A DNA stretch of 60,474 bases from Massiliimicrobium timonense (GTDB lineage: Bacteria > Bacillota_I > Bacilli_A > Erysipelotrichales > Coprobacillaceae), in the NCBI RefSeq assembly GCF_002160865.1, contig NZ_NFLJ01000016.1, positions 1 through 60,474 of the forward strand. The letters run 5' to 3'. The notes under the pieces are model-generated. The model had not been told where the DNA came from, searched no databases, and worked only from the letters and a program-made list of their open reading frames with translations. The position numbers and the translations under genes are program-made. Position 1 is the first letter of the stretch; each line of letters begins with the position of its first letter. Of the stretch, positions 21,832 through 35,286 are shown piece by piece.

Positions 21832-21855
21832 TAATAATTGTTGTGAGAAGATTAG

Positions 21856-21899
21856 AGAAGTATTTAGACTTTGTGAGAAGTTTGAATACTTCTTTTTTT
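21856..21899 (+). terminator. Terminator behind rpsI
   Basis: AGAAGTATT (21856-21864) pairs with AATACTTCT (21885-21893), followed by TTTTTT. TTGTGAGAAG occurs twice here, at 21841-21850 and inside the hairpin loop at 21871-21880. A related terminator with the same left arm lies at 23184, on the other side of the Abi gene. Confidence 0.8.
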
Positions 21900-22008: not shown

Positions 22009-22033
22009 TTCTTGAAAAGGGAGGGAATATTAT

Positions 22034-22971
22034 ATGTTAGAAAATGGTACTTTAGAATTAAAAAATCACGAACGATAGAAGATAGGATAGATAAATTACA
22101 AAAAAGACATTTGTTAATTGATGATTATCATTTACTATATAATTATATAAAAAATGTAAATACTTATTATCATATTACTGGATATAGATTTTTACTGGAT
22201 AATTATAATGTTGAAGAAGATGACTATCATAATCATAAGTGTACAGAGCTGATAGCTTTATGTGAGCTAGATAAAAAAATTTCTATAATGCTTTTTCAGG
22301 AAACTAGGAAAATAGAAGAATCTCTAAGAACAAGATTAGCAAATCTATGTGGCCAAGATGATATGGTAACTTTTAAACTTGATGATATTCATAAAATATC
22401 TTTGTTAAAAGATAATTATTGTCTTGTTAATAATTCAACAGAAAAATTCATTGCTGAAGATACATATAATCGTATTTTGAGTAAAACTCTTTATGATGAT
22501 ATTAATAAAACAAGAGAAGAACCGGCAATCAAGCATTATATCAATGCATATAATGGTATTATTCCTATTTGGGTAGCAATAAACTTTATTAGTTTTGGTA
22601 CTTTAATAAAATTAATCGATTGCTTAACTACTGTAAAGCTTAATGAATTTATGGAAGGAAAACCATATAAAAAACCTAAAGGGCTAATGATTCCTAGTAG
22701 AGTTGATTTGAAATCTATCCATATGCTACGTAATAAAATATCTCATCATTCCAATATTTTAGGAAAACAATCTCCCTATATTGTTAAAGGAAAGTTCTAT
22801 TCAATCTTCTTTTTAGGATATATTTCAATTTGTCATTGGTCAAATTTTTTATTTAATGAAAATTTAACATTACCTTTAAGACAAAAAATAGATGAAATTA
22901 TTGAAGAAACTAACACAGAATACAATACAAAATTTGATTTTTCTATAATTCACAATAGAAAAATCAAATAA
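22034..22971 (+). CDS. Abi_2 family (AbiD/AbiF-like) abortive-infection protein with HEPN motif; probable N-terminal frameshift
   Basis: Roughly 310 residues with the Abi_2 pattern: TIEDRIDKLQKRHLLIDD, the tract YHITGYRFLLDNY, LCELDKKISIMLFQETRKIEESLRTRL and, near the end, LRNKISHHSNI. RNKISH fits the HEPN RNase motif R-N-x-x-x-H. Start: the AAGGGAGGG ribosome-binding site serves the ATG at 22034. That frame stops after 14 codons (22076-22078), unless a -1 shift occurs in the A6 run at 22060-22065. Reading through gives MLENGTLELKKSRTIED, a natural family N terminus. Without a shift, the only start in the long frame is a TTG at 22012, which lies in its own ribosome-binding region and before the likely transcription start. 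AT-rich accessory gene inserted behind rpsI. Confidence 0.82.
22060..22065 (+). other. A6 homopolymer at the frame break of the Abi gene
   Basis: Six A residues separate the ATG frame from the main frame. Seven would fuse them perfectly. The zero-frame codons around it (TTA AAA AAT) also form an A-AAA-AAT slip site that would give the needed -1 shift. It may be a deletion, a phase-variable tract, a slippage site or a sequencing error. Confidence 0.6.
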
Positions 22972-23048: not shown

Positions 23049-23183
23049 TGTGAATACTCATGTTAAATAGTTATAAGATGTTCTGGCAATGCAACAAGTA
23101 AGCAACAAAAAACTTTGAATTCTTATTTTGTAAAGACTTGGTATTTTATAAACATGAATTTTCATTTATTGTGTGAGGATGGA
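23049..23183. other. Non-coding stretch of the Abi islet
   Basis: AT-rich sequence without a credible gene. It may belong to a longer form of the candidate small RNA or be debris of an inserted element. The segment near 23083-23110 (GCAATGCAACAAGTAAGCAAC) is less AT-biased and resembles no feature I can name. Confidence 0.35.
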
Positions 23184-23226
23184 AGAAGTATTTAGATTTT
23201 TTATAATCCAAATACTTTTTCTTTTA
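23184..23226 (+). terminator. Second, related terminator on the far side of the Abi gene
   Basis: AAGTATTT pairs with AAATACTT, followed by TTTCTTTT. Its left arm shares AGAAGTATTTAGA (23184-23196) exactly with the rpsI terminator (21856-21868), and TTGTGTGAGGAT upstream resembles TTGTGAGAAGAT there. It looks like a diverged copy of the rpsI terminator region. Confidence 0.65.
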
Positions 23227-23424: not shown

Positions 23425-23967
23425 ATGGATATAGTTCTTATTGTCGCTGCATTTATTTTATATTTCTTATATGACAAAAATCAGATACAATTACATCAAA
23501 AATGGCTTCAACCATCTTTTTTCTTAGGAAGTTTTTTACTCGCTGTAGGCATTATATATGCTTATATTCAATCTTGGCATCAAAATGTCAATTATGTATT
23601 TGTGGTTATAGCTATAGTTTTCTTTATTTTTCTCATCTATGTATTGTTTTTTGCTTTACCCTTTTCAGATACCTATGTTGAAGAAAACATACATAAAGTT
23701 TGTCAGACAGGATGCTATGCTCTATGTCGTCATCCTGGCTTTTGGCTTTTAGCAGGAATGATGATTAGTCTATCATTAAGTGTTATGACATGGCATATGT
23801 GGATAGTTGCATTAATCGTCAACATTGGTAATTTTATGTATATATGTTATCAAGATAAAGTCAGTTTTCCTTGTCAATTTGAGGATTATAATGAATATAA
23901 AAAGGAAGTTCCTTTTTTGCTTTTTACTTATCAATCAATAAGAAAATGTATAGATACATGGAGGTGA
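23425..23967 (+). CDS. Small membrane protein of the isoprenylcysteine/phospholipid methyltransferase type
   Basis: 180 residues with four or five membrane segments (about 2-16, 31-50, 56-80, 108-140). The motif CRHPGFWLL (R102-H103-P104) and the later FEDYNEYKKEVPFLL match the RHPxY...E...Y..Y...P pattern of the ICMT/PEMT methyltransferase superfamily, where these residues contact S-adenosylmethionine. The usual glutamate before the last motif is not obvious, so activity is uncertain. It is followed after 4 bases by the GH3 gene, so both probably act on one pathway. The substrate is unknown. Confidence 0.65.
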   Translation: MDIVLIVAAFILYFLYDKNQIQLHQKWLQPSFFLGSFLLAVGIIYAYIQSWHQNVNYVFVVIAIVFFIFLIYVLFFALPFSDTYVEENIHKVCQTGCYALCRHPGFWLLAGMMISLSLSVMTWHMWIVALIVNIGNFMYICYQDKVSFPCQFEDYNEYKKEVPFLLFTYQSIRKCIDTWR

Positions 23968-23971
23968 GAAT

Positions 23972-25591
23972 ATGCGATTTGAAGATAAAAGGAAAATACT
24001 ATCAAAAGAAGCTATCTGGCAGGAATATTGTGGCTTTTTAGATTTATCTATTGATAAGTTTATGCAAATGCAACATCGATTATTAGAAGAACAAATGGAT
24101 TTATGGAAAAAGAGCGTATTAGGGCAATCTATTTTAAAGGGAAAATCACTAGATTCATTTGAAGATTTTCAAAAGCATATCCCTCTTACAACATATGAAG
24201 ATTATGCTGATTTATTATTGAATAAAGATTCATCAGTTTTACCAGGTGAAGCTGTCTTATGGATTCAGACAACATGGGAAGGAGGCAGTCATCCCATTAA
24301 AGTGGCTCCATATACTGAAAACATGTTAAAAAGCTTTCAACATAATACCATAGCCTGTCTTCTATTAGCAACAAGTCAAAAGAAAAATGATTTTCATGTT
24401 TCTGATAAAGATACTATTTTATATGGTTTAGCGCCGCTGCCTTATGCTACAGGATTAGTATCACTGGTTTTTGAACAAGAAACTAATATCAAATTTCTAC
24501 CACCAGTAAAACAAGCTCAATCCATGTCATTTTCACAGAGAAATAAACTGGGATTTAAACAAGGATTGGCTCAAAATATTGATTATTTTTTTGGATTGGG
24601 TTCTGTGACCTATTACATTAGTTTAGCATTAGATAGTATGAGTAGTGGCAGTCATTCTCATTCTTCGATGTTGAAGTCTATCCCAGTACATCGTTTGTAT
24701 AAGATATTAAAAGCAAAGATGATATGTAAAAAAGAACAGCGAAGTTTAATGCCTAAAGATTTATTCCAACTCAAAGGATTTATGGTTGCTGGAACGGATA
24801 ATGATTTATATAAAGATGATTTAGAAAGATTATGGGGTATTCGTCCTATGGAAATTTTTGCTGGAACTGAGCCAACTTTGATTGGAACAGAAACATGGCA
24901 AAGAGATGGACTTTATTTCTTTCCCGATGCCTGTTTTTATGAATTTTTACCAGTCAGTGAAAGAGAAAGAATGAAAATAGACCCTTCCTATGTTCCTAAA
25001 ACATGTTTGTTGAATGAAGTTTGTGAAAATGAAACTTATGAAATTGTCTTAAGTGTACTTAAAGGTGGTGCCTTTATGCGATATAGAGTAGGGGATATGT
25101 ATCGTTGCGTTTCATATACTCAACAAGATCAAGGAAATCTACCTAAATTTAAATATATTGATCGTGTACCAGAAGTTATTGATATTGCCGGATTTACACG
25201 TATTACACAAACTTCTATAGAAATGGTTATCCAATTGTCAGGATTACCTATTACAGAATTTTGTGCTAAAAAAGAACTCTATAATAATCGTCCTTTCTTG
25301 CATCTTTATGTTGAAGTGTCACCTTCTTCAGCTTATGAACGTGCTATTACAGTAGAGGTTTTACGTCAACATCTTTCTGTTTATTTTCATTATGTTGATC
25401 AAGATTATAAAGATCTTAAGAAAATACTTGGTATTGAGCCATTACAAATAACATTATTGAAAATAGGAACATTTGCGATGTATAAAAAAGCATATGGACA
25501 GAGTATGGAACGTATTAACCCTTCAATACATGCGATTCAAAAACTGCTATCATTACAACAATCTTATTATGAAATGGAGGGAAAGATTTAA
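23972..25591 (+). CDS. GH3-family acyl-adenylate-forming enzyme
   Basis: 539 residues resembling GH3 proteins, members of the ANL adenylating superfamily that link acids to amino acids through an acyl-AMP. Visible blocks: the nucleotide loop TTWEGGSHPIKVAPYTENM (about 97-115), FAGTEPTLIG, the hinge region MRYRVGDMYRC, and a C-terminal FAMYKKAYGQS with the conserved lysine. The first loop lacks the usual SSGTT spelling, so nucleotide binding may be modified. It lies between a membrane methyltransferase-like gene (4 bases away) and an HD-GYP gene (1 base away), a grouping I do not know from described systems. Substrate unknown. Confidence 0.75.
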   Translation: MRFEDKRKILSKEAIWQEYCGFLDLSIDKFMQMQHRLLEEQMDLWKKSVLGQSILKGKSLDSFEDFQKHIPLTTYEDYADLLLNKDSSVLPGEAVLWIQTTWEGGSHPIKVAPYTENMLKSFQHNTIACLLLATSQKKNDFHVSDKDTILYGLAPLPYATGLVSLVFEQETNIKFLPPVKQAQSMSFSQRNKLGFKQGLAQNIDYFFGLGSVTYYISLALDSMSSGSHSHSSMLKSIPVHRLYKILKAKMICKKEQRSLMPKDLFQLKGFMVAGTDNDLYKDDLERLWGIRPMEIFAGTEPTLIGTETWQRDGLYFFPDACFYEFLPVSERERMKIDPSYVPKTCLLNEVCENETYEIVLSVLKGGAFMRYRVGDMYRCVSYTQQDQGNLPKFKYIDRVPEVIDIAGFTRITQTSIEMVIQLSGLPITEFCAKKELYNNRPFLHLYVEVSPSSAYERAITVEVLRQHLSVYFHYVDQDYKDLKKILGIEPLQITLLKIGTFAMYKKAYGQSMERINPSIHAIQKLLSLQQSYYEMEGKI

Positions 25592-25592
25592 A

Positions 25593-28124
25593 ATGAGTTA
25601 TGCTTCTTTTTCAATTTTTGCTTTAGTATGCTATATTTATCTTTTTTTAGCTTTACTGGCAAGTCAAAAAAATCGATTAATCTTTTCCTTTTTAATTTTA
25701 CTTGTTGATATGATTTTATGGACAGGTGGTTCTTTTGCCATGCGAATGTGCTTTGGACCATCAACTTCGTTCTGGTTCGATGTGTCCTTAATTGGTCTTA
25801 TTTTTATGCCTTATGTTTTTTATAACTTTATTTCTGAATTTATTGGTAAAAAAGATGAAAAAATACGTCGTTTCTGGTTATATATTTCTATTATTTTAAA
25901 TGTTTTAAATTACACAACACATGTTTTTTTAGAAGCTCCAGAAATGATTATGCTACACAATGATGTTGTCTTTATTTATCATTTTACATGGCACATTTAC
26001 ATTGTTATTGGTATTTGCATTATTTGTGCATTACAGATTGTTTATAATGTTTATTGTTGTGTTAAAAATGGGGATCGTATGCTTTATCAGTTTACACCTA
26101 TTTTAGCAGGTATTTCTATCCTGCTACTTGGTCATGGACTCATCATGCTTGATATTTTTAAAGGAATACCTTTAGATATATTAAGTGGAATTATTAATGC
26201 TTTACTATTGTTCTATGCATTGTATAAAAAACATCTTTTTAATTTAAAGTTGCTTGTATCTAAAAGAAATTGTTATGCTATTTCAGCAATCATTACGATT
26301 TTATTATTTAGTAATTACTTAGTTCCATTACGCAATTTTATTGTCCAACATTTTTCTTATTACTTAGATCCAATGATTCTTGTTTTTATTATTTTTATGT
26401 TCGTTTTTGTTTGTATTCAGACATTATTAAAACGTTTTATTGATCAAATCTTTATTAAAGAAGAAAAGCAACAGGCAGATTATTTGAAAAGCTTTTCAGA
26501 TCATGTAAGAAATACTTTAAGCGTTTATGAAATTGCACAAGATATTTGTGAAATTATCACAGAAACATTGGGTGTGCATCGTGTCTATGTCTGTATGCAG
26601 GAAGGTAACCATCAAGATTATCATATTATATATGGTAATGCTTCCTTAGAACGTCAGAATTTTACTTTTCAAGTAGATAATCCAATAGTAGAAGAATTAA
26701 AAGAAAAGAAAGATTGTTTGCTTTATGATGATTTTAAACGTAGTTTAAATTATCGTTCAATGTGGGAAAATGAGAAACAATTATTAGAACATTTGCAGAT
26801 AGAATGTATTGTTCCTTTAATAGAAGATGAATTAATTGGAATGGTATTATTAACAAAAAAGTTAAAAAATCAATATACTTATGAAGATATGAAATTTTTA
26901 TCATCAGTTGCTTCTATTAGTACAATTGCCTTAAAAAATTCTCGTTTATATGAAATGGTCTATCAAGAAGCAATTAGTGACGAGATGACTGGTTTATTAA
27001 ATAGAAAATATTTCTATAAACAATTTGAAGAACTTTTTACTCAAAAAGGAAAAGAGTGTACTTTGACTTTGATTTTAGTCAGTTTAGATGATGTGAGGCT
27101 TTATAATCAGCTTTATGGTACAAAAGAAGGCGATAAAGCTATTATGAAAGCTGCTCAAATCATGCAAAAAACAATGCCTGATACAGCTATTATTTCTCGT
27201 CTATCAGGAAAAGAATTTGCAATTTTATTACCAGAATGCAGTTTGCAGACAGCTCGTGATTTAGCAGAAAATGTTCGCTATCAATTAGCTAATGCTAATA
27301 ATGATCAAGATGATTTTGCTTTAAGATCTGTGACCGGAAGCTTTGGAATTGCTTCTATACCTCTACTTGCCAGTAATCCAAAGCAGTTAGAAGAATATGC
27401 CAACCAGGCTTTATACCAAGCCAAAAGAAGGGGAAAGAATCAGGTTGTTATTTATAATGAAGAAACAAAGTCTTCTATGCAGACACAAAAAGATTCCAAA
27501 GATAAAGAAAATATTTATTCAGAATATGCTGAAATGATTTATGCCTTAACAGCAACCATTGATACCAAAGATCATTATACATTTACCCATTCTAAAAATG
27601 TGGCTTATTATGCTTGTGAATTGGCTTATGCAATTGGGTTGAAAGAAGATGTTGTTGAAATTATTCGAGAAGCTGCACTTTTGCATGATATTGGAAAAAT
27701 TGGTATTCGAGAAGATATACTCAATAAACAAGGTAAATTAACAAGTGAAGAATATGAAATTATGAAAGGTCATGTGGAAAACTCTATTGGCATTATTCGT
27801 TATTTACCATCACTTGATTATGTTATTCCTGTTGTTATATCGCATCATGAAAGATGGGATGGCAGAGGTTATCCACGAGGTATTTCTAAAGAAGATATTC
27901 CTATTGGAGGTAGAATTCTTTGTGTTGCCGATTCTTTTGATGCGATGACATCAAAGCGTTCCTATAAAGAATCTTTTACACTTGAGTATGCAATCAAAGA
28001 ATTAAAAAATCAGGCAGGAAAGCAATTTGATCCTCAATTGGCTGAAGTTTTTGTTCGTCTATTAGAAAGTGGACACATCAAATTACAAGTAGAACAAAGA
28101 GAAAAAAATCATTCTACAGATTAA
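25593..28124 (+). CDS. Membrane sensor with GAF, degenerate GGDEF and HD-GYP domains
   Basis: 843 residues. Residues 1-285 hold about eight or nine membrane segments. A GAF-like domain follows (about 300-465), then a GGDEF domain whose signature is SGKEF (538-542), so cyclase activity is unlikely. Last is an HD-GYP domain with LHDIGKIG (H698-D699) and HHERWDGRGYP (751-761), all metal ligands apparently intact. Expected role: breakdown of c-di-GMP in response to a membrane or GAF-sensed signal. I chose ATG 25593 because GGAGGGAAAG precedes it; earlier in-frame codons lie inside the GH3 gene. Terminator follows. Confidence 0.88.
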   Translation: MSYASFSIFALVCYIYLFLALLASQKNRLIFSFLILLVDMILWTGGSFAMRMCFGPSTSFWFDVSLIGLIFMPYVFYNFISEFIGKKDEKIRRFWLYISIILNVLNYTTHVFLEAPEMIMLHNDVVFIYHFTWHIYIVIGICIICALQIVYNVYCCVKNGDRMLYQFTPILAGISILLLGHGLIMLDIFKGIPLDILSGIINALLLFYALYKKHLFNLKLLVSKRNCYAISAIITILLFSNYLVPLRNFIVQHFSYYLDPMILVFIIFMFVFVCIQTLLKRFIDQIFIKEEKQQADYLKSFSDHVRNTLSVYEIAQDICEIITETLGVHRVYVCMQEGNHQDYHIIYGNASLERQNFTFQVDNPIVEELKEKKDCLLYDDFKRSLNYRSMWENEKQLLEHLQIECIVPLIEDELIGMVLLTKKLKNQYTYEDMKFLSSVASISTIALKNSRLYEMVYQEAISDEMTGLLNRKYFYKQFEELFTQKGKECTLTLILVSLDDVRLYNQLYGTKEGDKAIMKAAQIMQKTMPDTAIISRLSGKEFAILLPECSLQTARDLAENVRYQLANANNDQDDFALRSVTGSFGIASIPLLASNPKQLEEYANQALYQAKRRGKNQVVIYNEETKSSMQTQKDSKDKENIYSEYAEMIYALTATIDTKDHYTFTHSKNVAYYACELAYAIGLKEDVVEIIREAALLHDIGKIGIREDILNKQGKLTSEEYEIMKGHVENSIGIIRYLPSLDYVIPVVISHHERWDGRGYPRGISKEDIPIGGRILCVADSFDAMTSKRSYKESFTLEYAIKELKNQAGKQFDPQLAEVFVRLLESGHIKLQVEQREKNHSTD

Positions 28125-28147
28125 GAAGGAGAAATCCTTCTTTTTTT
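28124..28147 (+). terminator. Terminator behind the HD-GYP gene
   Basis: AGAAGGA pairs with TCCTTCT across GAAA, followed by seven T. It separates the HD-GYP operon from the cyclase operon. Confidence 0.85.
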
Positions 28148-28228
28148 GTTGGGGTATATAAATTTTATATGGATTAAGATATGAGATTTATATTATGCAA
28201 GCGAACCGATATGCGATATAAATAGACT

Positions 28229-28247
28229 TGTATATTTTGAATATACA
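28229..28247. promoter_or_regulatory. Palindrome upstream of the cyclase gene
   Basis: TGTATATT and AATATACA form an inverted repeat with a 3-base centre, ending 13 bases before the ATG and just before the AGAAAGGA ribosome-binding site. It could be an operator or a translation-blocking hairpin. Confidence 0.35.
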
Positions 28248-28260
28248 GAAAGGATTTGTT

Positions 28261-29358
28261 ATGAATGAAAATAAACTTTATCAAAGAATAACTTTATATT
28301 TTTTTATGACTGCTTGCATCTTATGGTTTTTATTATCTTATTTGATTTTTCAAAGATTTGCAGCACTATGGTTTTTAAATATCATCCAGCTTGTCTTTAC
28401 TATTTTTCTTCTCATTATTTTTCATTTCATGATGATGTATATCATGTTAATCAAATATTTAAAAAAATTTGATCATCACCCTAAATTACAAATATTCTGT
28501 CATCATCAGTCCTTTATTCCTCTACCTCATCAAGATATTGCCATGTTTTTATATTTGCATAAAAATCATTCTACCTATCATTCCATGAATATAGCATCTT
28601 TATTAGGACTAGATTTTCAACAACGTCAAACATTAAAAAAGGCACCAGATCAGTTTTGTGAATATATTTTAAATTTAGAAAAACAAATGAATGAAGATCA
28701 TCTTATTGAAATCAATGGAAAGTTCTTATCAATTTATACTTATTCTTTAGAACATGAATTTCTTGGAATTATTATTGACCGTACTCAAGATATGATTAAA
28801 AAAACATGTTTAATCAATCAATTAAAAGAAGTAGAAATCAATTCACAGATTGATTCACTTACAAAAGTATATAATCGTAGAGGTTTTGAATTACATGTCC
28901 AAAACTGTCTTTGTTTAAATTGTCAAGAAGGTGTCATGATGGCTTTAGATGTAGATAATTTTAAATCTATTAATGATAATTATGGTCACCAAGAGGGTGA
29001 TAAAGTACTACAACAGATTGCACAATTTTTAACGCACCATTGTTCTTTACAAGATATTATTGGAAGAATAGGTGGTGATGAATTTTTGATTTTTATACCA
29101 CATACATTACCTATGACTCACTTAGAAACTCAACTCAAATGTTTGATTCAAAAACTTCAAAAGAGTTTAGGTCACTATTACCATGATAATCACGTATCTA
29201 TGAGTATTGGTGTTGTCTTTGTTGGTCCTACCATTCATGATTATCATTCACTATATTATTTTGCTGACATGGCCTTATATCATGCGAAAAAATCAGGAAA
29301 AAATAAATATTATATTTATTATGATTATGAATATAAAAATAGAAAGAGGTTGTTATGA
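28261..29358 (+). CDS. Membrane diguanylate cyclase (GGDEF)
   Basis: 365 residues with two membrane helices (about 10-30 and 38-62), an intermediate sensing region, and a C-terminal GGDEF domain. It has DSLTKVYNRRGFE, DVDNFKSINDNYGHQEGDKVL and an intact GGDEF at 271-275, so c-di-GMP synthesis is likely. The inhibitory I-site is lost: SLQD stands where RxxD would be. The start at ATG 28261 has AAAGGA before it. Its last codon overlaps the next gene (ATGA), linking it to polysaccharide glycosyltransferases. Confidence 0.9.
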   Translation: MNENKLYQRITLYFFMTACILWFLLSYLIFQRFAALWFLNIIQLVFTIFLLIIFHFMMMYIMLIKYLKKFDHHPKLQIFCHHQSFIPLPHQDIAMFLYLHKNHSTYHSMNIASLLGLDFQQRQTLKKAPDQFCEYILNLEKQMNEDHLIEINGKFLSIYTYSLEHEFLGIIIDRTQDMIKKTCLINQLKEVEINSQIDSLTKVYNRRGFELHVQNCLCLNCQEGVMMALDVDNFKSINDNYGHQEGDKVLQQIAQFLTHHCSLQDIIGRIGGDEFLIFIPHTLPMTHLETQLKCLIQKLQKSLGHYYHDNHVSMSIGVVFVGPTIHDYHSLYYFADMALYHAKKSGKNKYYIYYDYEYKNRKRLL

Positions 29359-30407
29359 ACAATACATGTATTTTAATTCCAGCTTTAGAACCTTCATATC
29401 ATTTTATAGATTATGTTAAAGCATTAAAACAAATATCTCATCTTTATATCGTTGTTGTTAATGATGGTTCAAATCAAGACTATCAAGTGATTTTTGATAC
29501 TATTGATCAAATACCACAATGTTATGTCATTAAGCATTCAAAAAATCTAGGCAAAGGAGAAGCTTTAAAAAGTGGTTATCGTTTTATTCAAAAACATTTA
29601 TCATTTTGTCAAAAAATCATCTGTGTCGATTGTGATGGACAACATGCTGTGACAGATATTCAAAACATCATTGAAAAAATGTATCATCAAGAAAGTTTAT
29701 TTATGCTTGGTGTCAGAGATTTTTCTTTACACCATGTTCCCATTAAATCGTGGCTAGGGAATCGTATAGCTTCCATTCTTTTATGGTTTTCTACAGGTTA
29801 TTATATTCAAGATACTCAAACGGGATTAAGAGGTTATGATTATCAATTGCTGGATTCACTTTTAAAAATTCATGGACAAAGATTTGAATATGAAATGAAT
29901 GCATTGGTAGTTCTTTTAAAACAAGGTATTTTGGATACGACAGAGATTCAAACCATTTATTACCATCACAATCAACATAGTCATTTTAGACCTATTCAAG
30001 ATACATGGCTGATTATTAAGAATCTATATCTCCCATTTTGCTTATATACATCTTTTTCTTTTTTATGTTTTATTGTAGATTGGCTCCTTTTTATCAGTTT
30101 TTATTTCTTGTTTACACTTTTCAATTTATCTTCTTTTGAAATAATCTTTTTGGGTAGTTTGTTTGCTCGTCTATTTTCACTTATTTGTCATTATCATCTT
30201 ATCCAAAAATATGTGTTTCAACCTATTTTTCAAAAGTATCGATTGCCTCGCTATATGATTTTGTGCATGACTATTTTCCTTTTATCAGCCACAGGAACGT
30301 ATTTTCTTCAATCTTTTCTGCCAGTCCAAATGAGTAAAATCATGATAGATGGATGCTTATTTATTCTTTCATATTATCTACAAAAAAAGTGGGTTTTCTA
30401 TGATTAA
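29355..30407 (+). CDS. GT2 glycosyltransferase fused to a GtrA-like membrane domain
   Basis: 350 residues. The N-terminal half is a GT2 domain of the dolichyl-phosphate sugar synthase type: VVVNDGSNQD, KNLGKGEALKSGY, CVDCDGQH as the DxD site, QDTQTGLRGY. The C-terminal part (about 225-350) has four membrane helices in the GtrA pattern. Such proteins make and flip polyprenyl-phosphate sugars. It overlaps the cyclase by 4 bases and the BcsA-like gene by 8. Likely role: supply of lipid-linked sugar for the surface polymer. Confidence 0.85.
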   Translation: MNNTCILIPALEPSYHFIDYVKALKQISHLYIVVVNDGSNQDYQVIFDTIDQIPQCYVIKHSKNLGKGEALKSGYRFIQKHLSFCQKIICVDCDGQHAVTDIQNIIEKMYHQESLFMLGVRDFSLHHVPIKSWLGNRIASILLWFSTGYYIQDTQTGLRGYDYQLLDSLLKIHGQRFEYEMNALVVLLKQGILDTTEIQTIYYHHNQHSHFRPIQDTWLIIKNLYLPFCLYTSFSFLCFIVDWLLFISFYFLFTLFNLSSFEIIFLGSLFARLFSLICHYHLIQKYVFQPIFQKYRLPRYMILCMTIFLLSATGTYFLQSFLPVQMSKIMIDGCLFILSYYLQKKWVFYD

Positions 30408-32610
30408 GAAAAGCAATATCATCTTTATTTTATCCTTTATCTTTTCATCTCTTTATCTGATCTGGCGAACATTCTGGACTTTGCCATTGAATCAAAGTAT
30501 GGGTGAAATTATATTTGCAGTCATATTATTGTTATCTGAAATTATCACAACTTTTACAAGTTTTGAGCTGATCATTCATAAAATGAGGAATGTTGAAAAA
30601 AGATTGGTTCCACCTGTTTTACAAGCCCAAGATTATCCTGAAATTGATATTTTTATCGCCACTCACAATGAAAGTGTTGACTTACTATATAAAACAGTGA
30701 ATGCCTGTACTTTCTTAGAATATCCGGACTTACAGCTTGTACATATTTATATTTGTGATGACCAAAATCGACCAGAAGTCAAACACCTGGCTGAACATTT
30801 TGGTGTTGGATATATTGGTTTAGAATATAATCAACATGCAAAAGCAGGTAATTTTAATCATGCCTTATCAATGACACATTCACCACTCATTGTGACTTTT
30901 GATGCTGATATGATACCAGAAAGAACTTTTTTAATGAAGACAGTTCCTTATTTTTTTATGAAAGATACAAAGACATCTTCTTATTTACCAATTGCTTTAG
31001 TGCAAACACCCCAAAGTTTCTATAATCAGGATTTGTTTCAATTTCATCTTTTTTCAGAAACAACAATTCCCAATGAACAGGACTTTTTTTCAAAAGAAAT
31101 CAATGTTTTAAGAAATGCACATTTTGGTGCTAGTTATACAGGAAGTAATGCTGTGATATTACGTGAAGCTCTTGAAAAGATAGGTGGTTTTCCTTACCAT
31201 ACTGTTACAGAAGATTTTGAAACAAGCATTCGTTTACAAAAAGCAGGATATTGGACTTATTCGACTCAAGAATCTCTTGCTTCTGGCTTATCAACAACAA
31301 CAATTCCAAGTATGATCCAACAAAGAATTCGTTGGGCTCAAGGTGTCATTCAAAGTATATATAATACACATGCCTGTACAACATCATCTCTTTCTTTAGG
31401 TTTAAGATTATCCTATCTGTGTGCGTTTCTTTATTGGTGGTCTTTTTTGACACGTCTTATTTTTATTTTAGCTCCGATTCTCTTTGCTTTATTTGATTTA
31501 CAGTTTGTTCAATGCCATTTTGGAGAGTTACTGATCTTTTGGTTACCATCTTCTATTTTTTATCATCTTTCTTTAAACGCTTTATCTACACAAACAAGAA
31601 ATCAACGATGGAGTCAAATCATTGATACCATTCTTGCACCATTTTTAATTATTCCTGTCCTTTTAGAAACATTAGGAATACATCAAAAAATATTTAAAGT
31701 CACAAATAAAAAGAAAGCAACTATGCATACACGTTCATTATTCTATATGATTCCTCATTTGATCCTGGTTATTCTAACGATATTGGCAATTATCCGCTAT
31801 GGCATGGGAAAATATGGCTCTGCCTTATTTTACAGCAGTGTTATTTTATTTTGGCTATTTTATAATCTGGTAACTTTGTGTTTTGCTATTTTCTTTATGT
31901 TAGGAAGACCATCATATCGTGCATATGAACGTTTTTCTATTCAAGAAGCTATTGATATTCATTTTCATCATCAAACATATCAGGGAATGAGTGTTGATTT
32001 CTCTTATGTCAGTTTATCATTTTCTTTATCATTACCTTTTTATGTTCCAGCTGATATTCCTTTTTATATAGAAATCAAAACTGATCAATATCAAACCACG
32101 TTACCTGTACAACTTTTATATGTCAAAGTTGTACAAGAACAATGGGTTTATGTAGTGCTACTACAGGATACACCAGAAGAAGACTATCGCCAATATCTTC
32201 AAATTATCCATGATCGTAAACATTCTTTACCTTCACATATTGATGAGTGGTCTTCTCTATATGATGATCTCTATCGTAATATTCAATCACGTTTTCAAAA
32301 AAGGCAACAAGAACAAAGGCAAACTTTTCGTATTCCTGTTGAACAGGTATTTCATTTGACAAATGGTATGGAAATTTTTGTAGTTGATTTTAATTATCAT
32401 TATCTTCTTGTGAAAGACTTTCAAGGAGATAAGCTAAAGGAATATTGTTTAAATTGGTATGGAATGATTTTTCAATTACGTTTTAAAAAGCAAGTCAATC
32501 ATCAACTTTGCCTTTTAGAAGTTATCAATTTTGAGGAACTTTTCTTCAATAAAAAAGCGTTAAAAGTATTTCTACAACATCTCATATACACAAAGGTGGA
32601 TGAAACATGA
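30400..32610 (+). CDS. BcsA/cellulose-synthase-like processive glycosyltransferase with PilZ-like C terminus
   Basis: 736 residues with membrane helices near the N terminus and after residue 330. The GT2 core has D120-D121, DAD (168-170), the base D in TEDFETS (271-272) and QRIRW (308-312), the full processive-synthase set. A PilZ-like segment follows: RAYER (507-511) and DFSYVS (533-538, final G replaced by S). A second similar segment has RQTFR (640-644) and DFNYHY (663-668). Start ATG 30400 overlaps the preceding gene. Expected: c-di-GMP-gated synthesis of an unknown beta-linked polymer; no BcsB partner is present. Confidence 0.85.
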   Translation: MIKKSNIIFILSFIFSSLYLIWRTFWTLPLNQSMGEIIFAVILLLSEIITTFTSFELIIHKMRNVEKRLVPPVLQAQDYPEIDIFIATHNESVDLLYKTVNACTFLEYPDLQLVHIYICDDQNRPEVKHLAEHFGVGYIGLEYNQHAKAGNFNHALSMTHSPLIVTFDADMIPERTFLMKTVPYFFMKDTKTSSYLPIALVQTPQSFYNQDLFQFHLFSETTIPNEQDFFSKEINVLRNAHFGASYTGSNAVILREALEKIGGFPYHTVTEDFETSIRLQKAGYWTYSTQESLASGLSTTTIPSMIQQRIRWAQGVIQSIYNTHACTTSSLSLGLRLSYLCAFLYWWSFLTRLIFILAPILFALFDLQFVQCHFGELLIFWLPSSIFYHLSLNALSTQTRNQRWSQIIDTILAPFLIIPVLLETLGIHQKIFKVTNKKKATMHTRSLFYMIPHLILVILTILAIIRYGMGKYGSALFYSSVILFWLFYNLVTLCFAIFFMLGRPSYRAYERFSIQEAIDIHFHHQTYQGMSVDFSYVSLSFSLSLPFYVPADIPFYIEIKTDQYQTTLPVQLLYVKVVQEQWVYVVLLQDTPEEDYRQYLQIIHDRKHSLPSHIDEWSSLYDDLYRNIQSRFQKRQQEQRQTFRIPVEQVFHLTNGMEIFVVDFNYHYLLVKDFQGDKLKEYCLNWYGMIFQLRFKKQVNHQLCLLEVINFEELFFNKKALKVFLQHLIYTKVDET

Positions 32611-34367
32611 TTTTTATATTTTTTATATCTTTAGCTGGTTATATATCTTTTCTATCAACAAAAGTTACGAAAACATATGTTCCAGTACTCACTTTAAGTT
32701 TGATAGGTTTATGTATTTATATTGGAGGTATTTTTCACATTCTTCAAATCATGGCATATATTGTCCTATTGATTGGGATGATATTAGGAATCATCGCCAT
32801 CAAAAGAATAAACATCAAAAGATTATCTTTTCCATATTGTTCTTTATGGACCTTATGTTTTATGATCATAGCTATCCTATTTTTTATTCTGTCATTATTT
32901 TTAAAATTTGATCATTTTGATAATTTTTCACATTGGGGAATTGTTGTAAAAAATATGCTTACTAATCATCGCTTTCCAGAAGCTAGAGATATGCTTATTG
33001 CATTTAAAGATTATCCATTAGGTATGTCATCATTAATTTATTATTTTTGCTTATTTTTAGGAAACAATCAGGGCATAATGATTATGTGCCAAAATGTGTT
33101 TATATTTTCATGCTTTTATGCTATGTTTGGTATCATAGAGGAAAAAAAGAGATTTTTACTTTATGTTATATTATCTACAGGATGTACTTTTATGATTTAT
33201 TTGAATATCACAATTCGCATTCAAAACCTACTTGTAGATTTTATATTACCATTACTAACTTTAGCAATATGCTCGTATATCTATCATCAACGAGATGATT
33301 TGATGAGTGCTTTGTATTTGATACCATTACTAGGTTTTTTAACTGTTATTAAAGAAATAGGTTTCTTTTTCATGTTGATAGCTTTTATATATTGGCAATG
33401 GTATTGTTGGCATAGTTCAGTTTCTTTGATGCAAAAATTAATCATGACAATAACAATTCTGATTATGAGTTTATTACCATTTTTATTATGGAAATATCAT
33501 ATGTCTATAACTTTTGCAGGAATGACACATAAGTTCGACTTATTATCAAAAACAATATCTGTGAATCAATATCCTACGATGATTTTATTCTTTTTTCAAT
33601 CGCTTTTTCATTTATCCAATCGTTCTACACAAACATTTCTTTTCTTTGAAATTCTTGTGATTGGATTATTGATTTTTCATCATTTCTTGATAAAGAAAAA
33701 ATGGCAATTAAAAAAAGCATGGTTATTAGGACATATGATTGTGGTGGTCTATGTATTTGGATTATTAGGGATGTATTTGTTTTCTATGCCTGAAGATGAG
33801 GCTATTCGTTTAGCAGGGATGGAACGCTATATATGTAGTATCGTTGTTTTTTATGTGGGGATGATTATGATGACTATAGTCAAAGATATTGAACGTTCGT
33901 TTTATATTCAATTGAAAGACAGTTATCATTATCAAGCTTTTTATTCACCACAGACAAAGAAAATTTATCAAAATACAACTTTAGTATTCATGATAATCAC
34001 TTTCTCATGTGTATATTCAGAATTATGTGAATTAATCGCTTTGCGACAAAATCATTCTTCTTCTCTTGCCAGTCAAGTTGAACAATTGGTAGGAGATCAA
34101 TGGTATAGTCGTAATCAAATGGACTTATCACGTTATTTAGTCATTGCTTCTAATCAAAATCAGCAAGTTTCTCAATATCAGTTAAGTTATACGATGAAAT
34201 ATTTCTTATACGCACCTTATGTAGATACATTATCCTATTTAAATGAGGATATAGATATAGAAAGCTATGATTATGTGATTATTCTTAATCGGGAATATAT
34301 TGATGAAACAGTGATAAAAAAGTATCCAGTCTTTTGTGAAGAAGGAATTTATAAGATAAAGAGATGA
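32607..34367 (+). CDS. Large polytopic membrane protein, GT-C-like
   Basis: 586 residues with a dozen or so membrane helices and a C-terminal extracytoplasmic domain. The loop HFDNFSHWGIVVKNML (about residues 100-115), followed by FKDYPLG, recalls the first loop of GT-C glycosyltransferases, where an acidic residue is catalytic. I do not recognise a precise family. It overlaps the BcsA-like gene by 4 bases (ATGA), so it very likely modifies or extends the same polymer from a lipid-linked sugar donor. Confidence 0.7.
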   Translation: MIFIFFISLAGYISFLSTKVTKTYVPVLTLSLIGLCIYIGGIFHILQIMAYIVLLIGMILGIIAIKRINIKRLSFPYCSLWTLCFMIIAILFFILSLFLKFDHFDNFSHWGIVVKNMLTNHRFPEARDMLIAFKDYPLGMSSLIYYFCLFLGNNQGIMIMCQNVFIFSCFYAMFGIIEEKKRFLLYVILSTGCTFMIYLNITIRIQNLLVDFILPLLTLAICSYIYHQRDDLMSALYLIPLLGFLTVIKEIGFFFMLIAFIYWQWYCWHSSVSLMQKLIMTITILIMSLLPFLLWKYHMSITFAGMTHKFDLLSKTISVNQYPTMILFFFQSLFHLSNRSTQTFLFFEILVIGLLIFHHFLIKKKWQLKKAWLLGHMIVVVYVFGLLGMYLFSMPEDEAIRLAGMERYICSIVVFYVGMIMMTIVKDIERSFYIQLKDSYHYQAFYSPQTKKIYQNTTLVFMIITFSCVYSELCELIALRQNHSSSLASQVEQLVGDQWYSRNQMDLSRYLVIASNQNQQVSQYQLSYTMKYFLYAPYVDTLSYLNEDIDIESYDYVIILNREYIDETVIKKYPVFCEEGIYKIKR

Positions 34368-34368
34368 A

Positions 34369-35286
34369 ATGATGGAAAAAAATCAATTGGAACAATATGT
34401 CACAGTTGTAGAAGCAGGAAGTATCAGTAAAGCAGCGAAAATACTTTATTTAGCTCAGCCTAATTTAAGTAAGACTATTCAAATGATGGAAGAAGAAATG
34501 GGCCAAAAGCTCTTATTAAGAAGTCATAGAGGGGTGGAAACAACACCACTTGGCAAAGAGCTTTATTACCACGCTAAAAATATTCTAGAACGTTTTGGTA
34601 TGATTGATGAGTGGAAAACTATGCATCAAAAGACATTACCTTGTTATTTGAATGTTTCTATATCTTCATTATTTTTAGATAAACGTATTTTACAAGAATT
34701 TTCTAGACAGACACAATCTATGGAAACGTTTATTCAACTACATGAAACAACACCTAAATCAGTATTAGAAGATTTAGTGAATGGACAAGCAGAATTAGGA
34801 ATTGTTATTTTGAATGATCAGATTTTACCTGCTTTTCAAAAGATTGCAGAAGCAAAAGAAATTCATGTTGAAGTGATAGATCGAAAACCATACTGTCTGC
34901 ATTATCATCGTCATTACCATTTAGAAAAAGATTTATCACAAGATCTCAGATTTTTGAACCACTATATCTGGATACACTTTCCATTAGATTTTTTTGGTTA
35001 TTTAAATGCGTCATTATCGCAATACGGTTTCATGATTCAAGTATCTCAAAAAAGAATAGTCAGTAATAATTATCATGCGATGATTCAAATGCTTTGTTTT
35101 TTAGATGCCTTTATTTTTGGAAACATTTGGCAAAAAGAAGAATTTGCCAGAACAAATATTGCATCAATACCTTTATCTTATATCCATATCCAACAGAATT
35201 TTATAATTCTTACAAAAAAAAGAGAAGCTCTTTCTCATGCAGGAAGTCTTTATTTAAAAATCTTGAAAGAGATTTATCAACTTTGA
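34369..35286 (+). CDS. LysR-family transcriptional regulator
   Basis: 305 residues. The N-terminal winged HTH has GSISKAAKILYLAQPNLSKT and GVETTPLGKELY; a substrate-binding domain follows. Two ATGs (34369 and 34372) are possible and no strong ribosome-binding site is visible; translation is probably coupled to the gene before, whose stop lies 1 base away. LysR genes usually lie divergent to their targets. Here it is the last gene of the polysaccharide operon, so it may regulate the operon or distant genes. Confidence 0.88.
   Translation: MMEKNQLEQYVTVVEAGSISKAAKILYLAQPNLSKTIQMMEEEMGQKLLLRSHRGVETTPLGKELYYHAKNILERFGMIDEWKTMHQKTLPCYLNVSISSLFLDKRILQEFSRQTQSMETFIQLHETTPKSVLEDLVNGQAELGIVILNDQILPAFQKIAEAKEIHVEVIDRKPYCLHYHRHYHLEKDLSQDLRFLNHYIWIHFPLDFFGYLNASLSQYGFMIQVSQKRIVSNNYHAMIQMLCFLDAFIFGNIWQKEEFARTNIASIPLSYIHIQQNFIILTKKREALSHAGSLYLKILKEIYQL

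What the first reader, a model, noticed from the sequence alone, without database searches (positions are those of the whole stretch)
23425..28124. Operon joining a membrane methyltransferase-like protein, a GH3 acyl-adenylating enzyme and an HD-GYP c-di-GMP sensor
Seen: three genes separated by 4 and 1 bases. GH3 enzymes are best known for coupling acids to amino acids in plants. The neighbour with CRHP resembles ICMT/PEMT methyltransferases, and the third gene is a multi-helix GAF/HD-GYP protein. Inference: the first two may make a small conjugated or methylated molecule that the membrane sensor detects, changing c-di-GMP levels. I know no described system of this layout.
Basis: partly seen in the sequence, partly recalled or inferred. 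Interest (0 to 1): 0.7.

Follow-up and report, generated by a model that had tools for sequence, protein, structure and literature searches.

The report
Three-gene lipid-signal cassette in Bacillota
A fixed set of three neighbouring genes, found in distantly related gut and anaerobic bacteria and practically never split up, looks like a self-contained chemical signalling unit: two enzymes that would make a small lipid-like molecule, and a membrane receptor that would read it and lower the messenger c-di-GMP. If true, it would be an unknown kind of hormone-like signalling in these bacteria.

Summary
The trio is real. It comprises an ICMT/PEMT-like membrane methyltransferase (23425-23967), a GH3 acyl-adenylating enzyme (23972-25591) and a HisKA_7TM-GAF-GGDEF-HD-GYP protein (25593-28124), and a terminator-like hairpin follows it. 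In 80 loci from Lachnospiraceae, Oscillospiraceae, Eubacteriaceae, Erysipelotrichia and others, plus distant relatives, order and strand are kept wherever the contig allows, while flanking genes differ. In 392 Bacillota genomes the methyltransferase and GH3 subfamilies occur in the same 11 genomes, the receptor in those 11 plus two. The unit moves as a block and is accessory within the genus. The HD-GYP active site is intact in all full-length members; GGDEF is degenerate (xGKEF) in the main clade, so the protein is probably a c-di-GMP phosphodiesterase. Methyltransferase relatives are lipid and carboxyl O-methyltransferases. The closest known logic is RpfF/RpfR (fatty-acid signal synthase plus PDE receptor), with unrelated parts; the closest enzyme precedent is planctomycete OlsH/OlsG. 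Best reading: a GH3-made, O-methylated N-acyl amino acid is a signal read by the 7TM receptor. Conservation is shown; chemistry and signalling are inferred. No description was found in the papers searched.

The parts
23425..23967 (+). Gene 1: integral-membrane methyltransferase of the ICMT/PEMT superfamily (180 aa)
   Evidence: Family profile hits ICMT 4A2N (E=2.6e-4) and 5V7P (E=0.0026). Members match Pfam PEMT (best 4.5e-9) and ICMT (1.7e-5) and NCBIfam isoprenylcysteine O-methyltransferase (2.5e-10), LmtA lipid A 1-phosphate O-methyltransferase (9.8e-8) and MddA (1.8e-5). AlphaFold2 pLDDT 94.6; structural matches MaSR1 Z 10.9, Ma-ICMT Z 9.3.
23728..23739 (+). RHPG motif of gene 1 (residues 102-105); R102 and H103 are invariant in 92 sequences
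23851..23856 (+). QD (residues 143-144) at the place of the EE pair of ICMT/PEMT; the deep clade has QE
23972..25591 (+). Gene 2: GH3-family acyl-adenylating / amido synthetase (539 aa)
   Evidence: Pfam GH3_M 4e-12 and GH3 2.2e-8, both over cut-off. Family profile hits plant GH3 structures, best 4B2G E=2.9e-10.
24269..24301 (+). Atypical GH3 motif I, TTWEGGxHPxK (residues 100-110), in place of [ST]SGTSxGxxK
   Evidence: T100, T101, W102, G105 and K110 100% conserved in 93 sequences; OlsH motif TSGTTQGATK.
24857..24871 (+). GH3 motif II, FAGTE (residues 296-300; YGSSE in plants)
   Evidence: G298, T299 and E300 100% conserved
25067..25096 (+). GH3 motif III, GAFMRYRVGD (residues 366-375; GLYRYRLGD in plants)
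   Evidence: R370, Y371, R372 and D375 100% conserved
25593..28124 (+). Gene 3: membrane receptor / c-di-GMP phosphodiesterase, HisKA_7TM-(2 TM)-GAF-GGDEF*-HD-GYP (843 aa)
25620..26246 (+). HisKA_7TM sensor domain of gene 3
   Evidence: Pfam PF16927, 42.8 bits, cut-off 28.6; 58 of 66 family members match. Predicted GPCR-like 7TM bundle, pLDDT 85.5.
26517..26933 (+). GAF domain of gene 3
26970..27443 (+). GGDEF domain of gene 3 with degenerate active site RLSGKEF (SGKEF at 27204-27218)
   Evidence: K at the third position of the motif in 74 of 77 full-length relatives; canonical GGEEF in the two deep-clade members read in full.
27558..28040 (+). HD-GYP phosphodiesterase domain of gene 3 (HD at 27684-27689, HHERWDGRGYP at 27843-27875)
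   Evidence: Active-site motifs intact in all 77 full-length members
28123..28142 (+). Intrinsic-terminator-like hairpin closing the trio

Best explanation
The three genes are one functional unit, a mobile small-molecule signalling cassette. The GH3 enzyme adenylates an acyl acid (most likely a fatty acid) with ATP and couples it to an amine (most likely an amino acid), giving an N-acyl amino acid. The ICMT-like membrane enzyme then O-methylates that lipid, most simply on its free carboxylate, giving a neutral, membrane-permeant N-acyl amino acid methyl ester. That product is chemically comparable to an acyl-homoserine lactone, whose carboxylate is masked as a lactone. The 7TM domain of the third protein binds the product in or at the outer leaflet, from the same cell or from neighbours, and through the GAF and pseudo-GGDEF modules changes the HD-GYP phosphodiesterase activity, and thereby c-di-GMP. 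Shown: the strict conservation and co-inheritance of the trio, the domain make-up, the intact HD-GYP and degenerate GGDEF motifs, and the retention of most GH3 and methyltransferase signature residues. Inferred: the substrates, the order of the two reactions, that the receptor's ligand is the product of the other two genes, and the sign of the effect.
For: MT-GH3-receptor, same order and strand, in all of L003-L010, L011-L090 and L095-L100; the only gap is L077, where GH3 starts 96 bp from the contig end. Flanks differ, and the commonest other neighbour family reaches only 10 of 80 loci. In 392 Bacillota genomes the trio MT (11 genomes, E<=1e-46, next match E=2e-12) and GH3 (same 11, plus one remote GH3) coincide exactly; the receptor occurs in these 11 plus 2. 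Tree distances correlate: GH3-receptor r=0.94, MT-GH3 0.75, permutation maximum 0.23. The trio is interleaved among taxa (Faecalicoccus L024 inside an Oscillospiraceae group) and absent from three same-genus genomes, one of them at the syntenic site. No transporter, transcription factor or further enzyme is conserved with it, which suits a membrane-permeant product read by a one-component receptor. MT members match O-methyltransferases of lipids or carboxylates. Bacterial GH3 OlsH makes N-acyl amino acids and sits next to a methyltransferase. RpfF/RpfR is a proven precedent for a fatty-acid signal synthase beside a PDE receptor.
Against: No product, ligand or activity is known. GH3 motif I is atypical (TTWEGG), so adenylation is inferred from motifs II and III and domain homology. 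In the methyltransferase the EE pair of ICMT/PEMT is QD, and by structure alone it matches a sterol reductase as well as ICMT. Conserved residues of the 7TM domain are not significantly enriched on the outer side (p=0.44). Two genomes carry a receptor of this kind without the enzymes beside it, and the receptor reading frame is interrupted in two loci.
Confidence: 0.5

Rival explanations
1. Membrane-lipid pathway with its own feedback sensor. GH3 and the methyltransferase make an abundant amino lipid (like the methylated ornithine lipids of planctomycetes), and the 7TM protein senses that lipid or the membrane state and adjusts c-di-GMP. It is homeostasis, not communication.
For: In Singulisphaera the GH3 enzyme OlsH, an N-methyltransferase and an acyltransferase build methylated ornithine lipids. 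The methyltransferase family is membrane-bound and related to phospholipid and lipid A methyltransferases.
Against: No acyltransferase (OlsI-like) or other lipid-synthesis gene is conserved with the trio. The OlsH model scores only 13.3 bits against a cut-off of 620. The cassette is accessory and sporadic (11 of 392 genomes), odd for a structural lipid. A dedicated receptor is present in essentially every case.
Confidence: 0.22
2. Detoxification or inactivation module. GH3 and the methyltransferase conjugate an exogenous acid (bile acid, host or plant acid, long-chain fatty acid), as plant GH3 enzymes inactivate hormones, and the 7TM protein senses the free acid.
For: Plant GH3 enzymes conjugate hormones, and many trio carriers live in the gut or rumen.
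Against: The trio also occurs in groundwater Acetobacterium and other non-gut MAGs. There is no transcriptional regulator or transporter in the unit, and a c-di-GMP phosphodiesterase is an unusual output for detoxification.
Confidence: 0.13
3. The first gene is not a methyltransferase but an NADPH-dependent reductase of the sterol-reductase / 5-alpha-reductase fold, so the product is a reduced rather than a methylated acyl amide. The circuit logic stays the same.
For: VIA-align Z 10.9 for the delta-14 sterol reductase 4QUV over 115 residues versus 9.3 for Ma-ICMT over 138; 20 of 69 members match DUF1295, mostly weakly (best 2.3e-8).
Against: Sequence profiles give ICMT in the PDB, and the enzyme families found in NCBIfam with the most members are all methyltransferases. 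The motif is RHPG with an acidic residue at the EE site, not the RHPNYFGE seen in the reductase-like relatives L139 and L153.
Confidence: 0.08

Closest known systems
RpfF/RpfR (BDSF quorum sensing, Burkholderia and Cronobacter) and RpfF/RpfC/RpfG
   Same: A lipid-type signal synthase is encoded beside a multidomain receptor that degrades c-di-GMP. BDSF binding to RpfR enhances its PDE activity (PMC8846402, PMC6361424).
   Different: The synthase is a crotonase-like RpfF, not GH3 plus a methyltransferase. The receptor is PAS-GGDEF-EAL and cytosolic, not 7TM-GAF-GGDEF-HD-GYP in the membrane. It is Gram-negative, and no part is homologous except the generic GGDEF domain (and, for RpfG, the generic HD-GYP domain).
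OlsH-OlsG-OlsI ornithine-lipid operon of Singulisphaera acidiphila (PMC12493201)
   Same: A bacterial GH3 enzyme is encoded in an operon with a methyltransferase; OlsH makes N-acyl ornithine from fatty acid, ATP and ornithine.
   Different: A different GH3 subfamily (NCBIfam NF052613: 13.3 bits against a cut-off of 620). OlsG is an ornithine-lipid N-methyltransferase, not the ICMT-like enzyme found here. There is an O-acyltransferase instead of a receptor and no c-di-GMP protein.
Plant GH3 acyl acid amido synthetases (JAR1, GH3.5, GH3.12)
   Same: GH3 fold domains and nucleotide motifs II and III; in plants these enzymes make or inactivate hormones by amino-acid conjugation.
   Different: Motif I is atypical (TTWEGGxHPxK). 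The sequence similarity is confined mostly to the central and C-terminal domains.
ICMT / PEMT / LmtA / MddA membrane methyltransferases
   Same: ICMT-like fold by profile and model, RHP motif, small membrane protein.
   Different: The EE pair is QD or QE, the window protein is below the Pfam cut-offs, and the substrate is unknown.
HisKA_7TM sensor kinases
   Same: The sensor domain belongs to PF16927.
   Different: The output is GAF-GGDEF-HD-GYP rather than a histidine kinase, and the gene practically always sits beside the GH3/methyltransferase pair.

Membership tests
GH3 acyl acid amido synthetase family | Pfam GH3 domains over the curated cut-off | tested here: met
   GH3_M 46.5 and GH3 34.1 bits, cut-off 23.6; all 45 members match GH3_M
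GH3 acyl acid amido synthetase family | Nucleotide motifs II and III | tested here: met
   FAGTE and GAFxRYRVGD, near 100% conserved, central domain aligned to plant GH3 structures
GH3 acyl acid amido synthetase family | Canonical motif I [ST]SGTSxGxxK | tested here: not met
   TTWEGGxHPxK instead; the Thr pair and the terminal Lys are kept and invariant
GH3 acyl acid amido synthetase family | ATP-dependent adenylation and amide formation | not testable with these tools
   Needs an enzyme assay
OlsH lyso-ornithine-lipid synthetase (NF052613) | Equivalog model over cut-off | tested here: not met
   13.3 bits, cut-off 620
OlsH lyso-ornithine-lipid synthetase (NF052613) | OlsI-type O-acyltransferase partner gene | tested here: not met
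   No fourth gene is conserved with the trio in 80 loci
ICMT/PEMT membrane methyltransferases | Pfam ICMT or PEMT over cut-off for the window protein | tested here: not met
   13.2 and 12.8 bits, cut-offs 24 and 25; other members reach 4.5e-9
ICMT/PEMT membrane methyltransferases | Homology by profile to solved ICMTs, and fold | tested here: met
   4A2N E=2.6e-4; Ma-ICMT Z 9.3 over 138 residues, but MaSR1 Z 10.9 over 115
ICMT/PEMT membrane methyltransferases | EE pair near the C-terminus | tested here: not met
   QD, or QE in the deep clade; the second acidic residue is kept
ICMT/PEMT membrane methyltransferases | SAM-dependent methyl transfer | not testable with these tools
   Needs an assay
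HD-GYP c-di-GMP phosphodiesterases | HD and HHExxDGxGYP signature residues | tested here: met
   Intact in all 77 full-length members
Active GGDEF diguanylate cyclases | GG[DE]EF active-site motif | tested here: not met
   Window SGKEF; K in 74 of 77 full-length members; canonical in two deep-clade members
HisKA_7TM sensors | PF16927 over cut-off | tested here: met
   42.8 bits, cut-off 28.6
DSF/Rpf quorum-sensing systems | RpfF-type crotonase synthase | tested here: not met
   No crotonase-fold domain in the trio
Quorum sensing in general | Released product sensed by the cognate receptor in a density-dependent way | not testable with these tools
   Needs mutants and conditioned-medium assays

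The most novel reading that the evidence does not exclude
A hormone-like small-molecule system of Bacillota that was not known: a GH3 enzyme and an ICMT-type carboxyl methyltransferase make an N-acyl amino acid methyl ester, a functional analogue of an acyl-homoserine lactone, which a GPCR-like 7TM receptor reads directly into c-di-GMP hydrolysis. It would be carried as a horizontally transferred three-gene cassette through gut and environmental anaerobes.
Probability: 0.35. Interest if true: 0.95.

Novelty: new variant of a known kind. Interest (0 to 1): 0.8.

Why it matters
Communication in Gram-positive bacteria is thought to rest mainly on peptides (general knowledge; also stated in the abstract of PMC5539150). 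[quoted passage not shown] A strictly conserved synthase-plus-receptor cassette in Lachnospiraceae, Oscillospiraceae, Erysipelotrichia and Eubacteriaceae would add a lipid-type signal to dominant gut anaerobes. It would give a function to an orphan branch of bacterial GH3 enzymes, and a ligand and a biosynthetic partner to HisKA_7TM receptors. Even if the product proves to be a membrane lipid, the obligate link between a GH3 pathway and a dedicated c-di-GMP receptor is undescribed as far as the searched literature shows.

Tried and rejected
(1) Chance adjacency or a lineage-specific operon: rejected by the survey. (2) A larger gene cluster: no fourth conserved gene. DegV and type II/IV secretion genes recur in a minority of loci only. 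(3) A link with the downstream GGDEF/polysaccharide genes (28228-35286) as part of the system: rejected as general, because the sister species L011 has the HAD gene directly after the third gene; it is a local difference. (4) OlsH membership: rejected. (5) Plasmid carriage: no match in 72,556 plasmid records. (6) A c-di-GMP riboswitch: none at gathering score in the window; the own-genome search for RF01051 is inconclusive because its controls did not ring either. (7) Conserved outer-face ligand pocket in the 7TM domain: the outer versus inner difference is not significant (p=0.44), although the outer half of TM2 is the most conserved part. (8) Foldseek of the 7TM model gives GPCRs, including lipid GPCRs, but helical-bundle scores of this size are common and are not taken as homology. 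(10) My first receptor alignment used a wrong frame for the window protein and was redone.
Full report
WHAT IS THERE. Gene 2 is a GH3 protein (GH3_M 46.5 and GH3 34.1 bits, cut-off 23.6). Gene 1 is below every Pfam cut-off alone, but its family profile finds the crystal structures of ICMT (4A2N E=2.6e-4, 5V7P E=0.0026). Family members match NCBIfam isoprenylcysteine O-methyltransferase, LmtA (lipid A 1-phosphate O-methyltransferase) and methanethiol S-methyltransferase.

CONSERVATION. In 60 relatives the GH3 protein occurs in 9 genomes (the window's own among them), always with the same two neighbours and with changing flanks. A scan of the 84,980-species genome collection with the GH3 alignment found 281 related stretches, and the best 80 were fetched. 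In all 80 the receptor gene follows, and in 79 the methyltransferase gene precedes, on the same strand; the one gap is a contig end. Carriers include Hungatella, Enterocloster-type clostridia, Coprococcus, Lactonifactor, Faecalicatena, Gemmiger, Oscillibacter, Acetobacterium, Faecalicoccus and [Clostridium] spiroforme, and one MAG labelled Fusobacteria (names as in the records). Six more distant loci in other Bacilli families (GH3 about 42% identical) keep the trio as well. No other gene is conserved with it; the next most common neighbour families reach 10 of 80 loci.

CO-OCCURRENCE. In the same sample of 392 Bacillota genomes, trio-type methyltransferases (E at most 1e-46, then a gap to 2e-12) are in 11 genomes and GH3 in the same 11 plus one remote GH3. 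The receptor is in those 11 plus two. The chance of two random 11-genome sets coinciding is about 1e-21; this ignores shared ancestry. Pairwise tree distances of the three proteins correlate (GH3-receptor r=0.94, methyltransferase-GH3 0.75, methyltransferase-receptor 0.76; best of 500 permutations about 0.23).

MOBILITY. Erysipelotrichia members are scattered through the GH3 tree: Faecalicoccus (L024) lies within Oscillospiraceae-type sequences and [C.] spiroforme (L067) within a Lachnospiraceae/Gemmiger group. Three same-genus genomes lack GH3. In G004 the syntenic stretch between rpsI and the HAD/MATE genes holds other genes, and in G002 and G003 the stretch before the HAD gene does so too. 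The cassette is accessory and moves as a block. No plasmid record holds it.

CATALYTIC STATE. HD-GYP signature residues are intact in all 77 full-length receptors. The GGDEF motif is xGKEF in nearly all (third position Lys in 74 of 77; window SGKEF), so cyclase activity is unlikely there; from general knowledge such sites can still bind GTP as an allosteric input. Two deep-clade trios read in full have a canonical GGEEF, so the loss looks derived. GH3 motifs II and III are invariant or nearly so, while motif I is TTWEGGxHPxK. In OlsH the serine of TSGTTQGATK is essential; the equivalent here would be an invariant Thr. The methyltransferase keeps RHP and one of two acidic residues of the EE pair (QD; QE in the deep clade). 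Its model (pLDDT 94.6) matches the delta-14 sterol reductase (Z 10.9, 115 residues) and Ma-ICMT (Z 9.3, 138 residues) about equally, so a reductase cannot be excluded by fold. Sequence points to methyl transfer.

RECEPTOR. Predicted helices and charge bias (Lys/Arg 4% in outer loops, 24% in inner loops) give an outside N-terminus, seven TM helices with a beta hairpin between TM4 and TM5, two further helices and cytosolic enzymatic domains. The bundle resembles GPCRs, but such scores are common for helical bundles.

MECHANISM PROPOSED. GH3 makes an N-acyl amino acid, the membrane methyltransferase masks it (most simply as the methyl ester), and the neutral lipid is read by the 7TM receptor, changing c-di-GMP hydrolysis. 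The absence of a transporter or transcription factor suits a membrane-permeant ligand and a one-component receptor. The logic equals RpfF/RpfR, where BDSF binding enhances PDE activity (PMC8846402); the parts do not. The nearest chemistry precedent is OlsH/OlsG in Singulisphaera (PMC12493201). The ligand-receptor link is inference from obligate linkage.

LOCAL CONTEXT. In the window a second module (28228-35286: a canonical-looking GGDEF protein, a GT2 protein, a cellulose-synthase-like protein with a weak PilZ match, a membrane protein and a LysR regulator) follows the trio. In the sister species (L011) it is absent and the HAD gene follows directly. It is not part of the cassette, but a c-di-GMP-linked polysaccharide module beside the trio's phosphodiesterase is suggestive. 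The genome has only six GGDEF matches, two of them here.

LITERATURE. Searches for GH3 together with GGDEF or HD-GYP, for GH3 in gut clostridia with c-di-GMP, and for N-acyl amino acid quorum sensing in Firmicutes found no description of this layout. Only open-licence PMC papers were searched.

Noticed in passing
28228-35286: About 7 kb module (GGDEF protein, GT2, cellulose-synthase-like GT with weak PilZ match, membrane protein, LysR regulator) is present between the trio and the HAD gene here but absent in the sister species L011, where the HAD gene follows the trio directly.
   Followed up: partly
22012-22971: Abi_2-family (abortive-infection-like) gene between rpsI and the trio, flanked by an imperfect 35-nt repeat (80%) of the rpsI terminator region (21838-21872 and 23166-23200), which suggests a past insertion.
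   Followed up: partly
L115 7290-9749 (G022): Receptor of the trio type (degenerate RYTGKVF, intact HD-GYP) in a genome where neither GH3 nor a trio-type methyltransferase was found: an orphan or eavesdropping receptor, or a remnant.
   Followed up: partly
L023, L027, L031, L035, L044, L071, L088, L123 flanks: Type II/IV secretion or pilus genes (T2SSE/PilT-like, T2SSF) lie within about 8 kb of the trio in three separate clades. Type IV pili are a known c-di-GMP target in clostridia; enrichment was not tested against a background.
   Followed up: partly
L023 9601-12175, L068 9618-12170: The receptor gene is interrupted by a frameshift (L023) or a stop codon (L068) while GH3 and the methyltransferase stay open; assembly error or loss of the receptor is not resolved.
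   Followed up: partly
L068 12359-13201: In Coprococcus comes the trio sits directly upstream of rplM-rpsI; in the window it sits downstream of rplM-rpsI. No other locus shows this.
   Followed up: yes
L101 (G348) 1213-2694: A different, more canonical GH3 protein (GH3 107.5 bits) in a Bacilli genome, without the trio partners.
   Followed up: no
L013, L017, L025, L028, L029, L034, L041, L061, L078 (position -2): The gene family represented by a DegV protein (fatty-acid-binding family, Pfam 244.7 bits in L078) lies just upstream of the methyltransferase gene in nine Lachnospiraceae-type loci.
   Followed up: no
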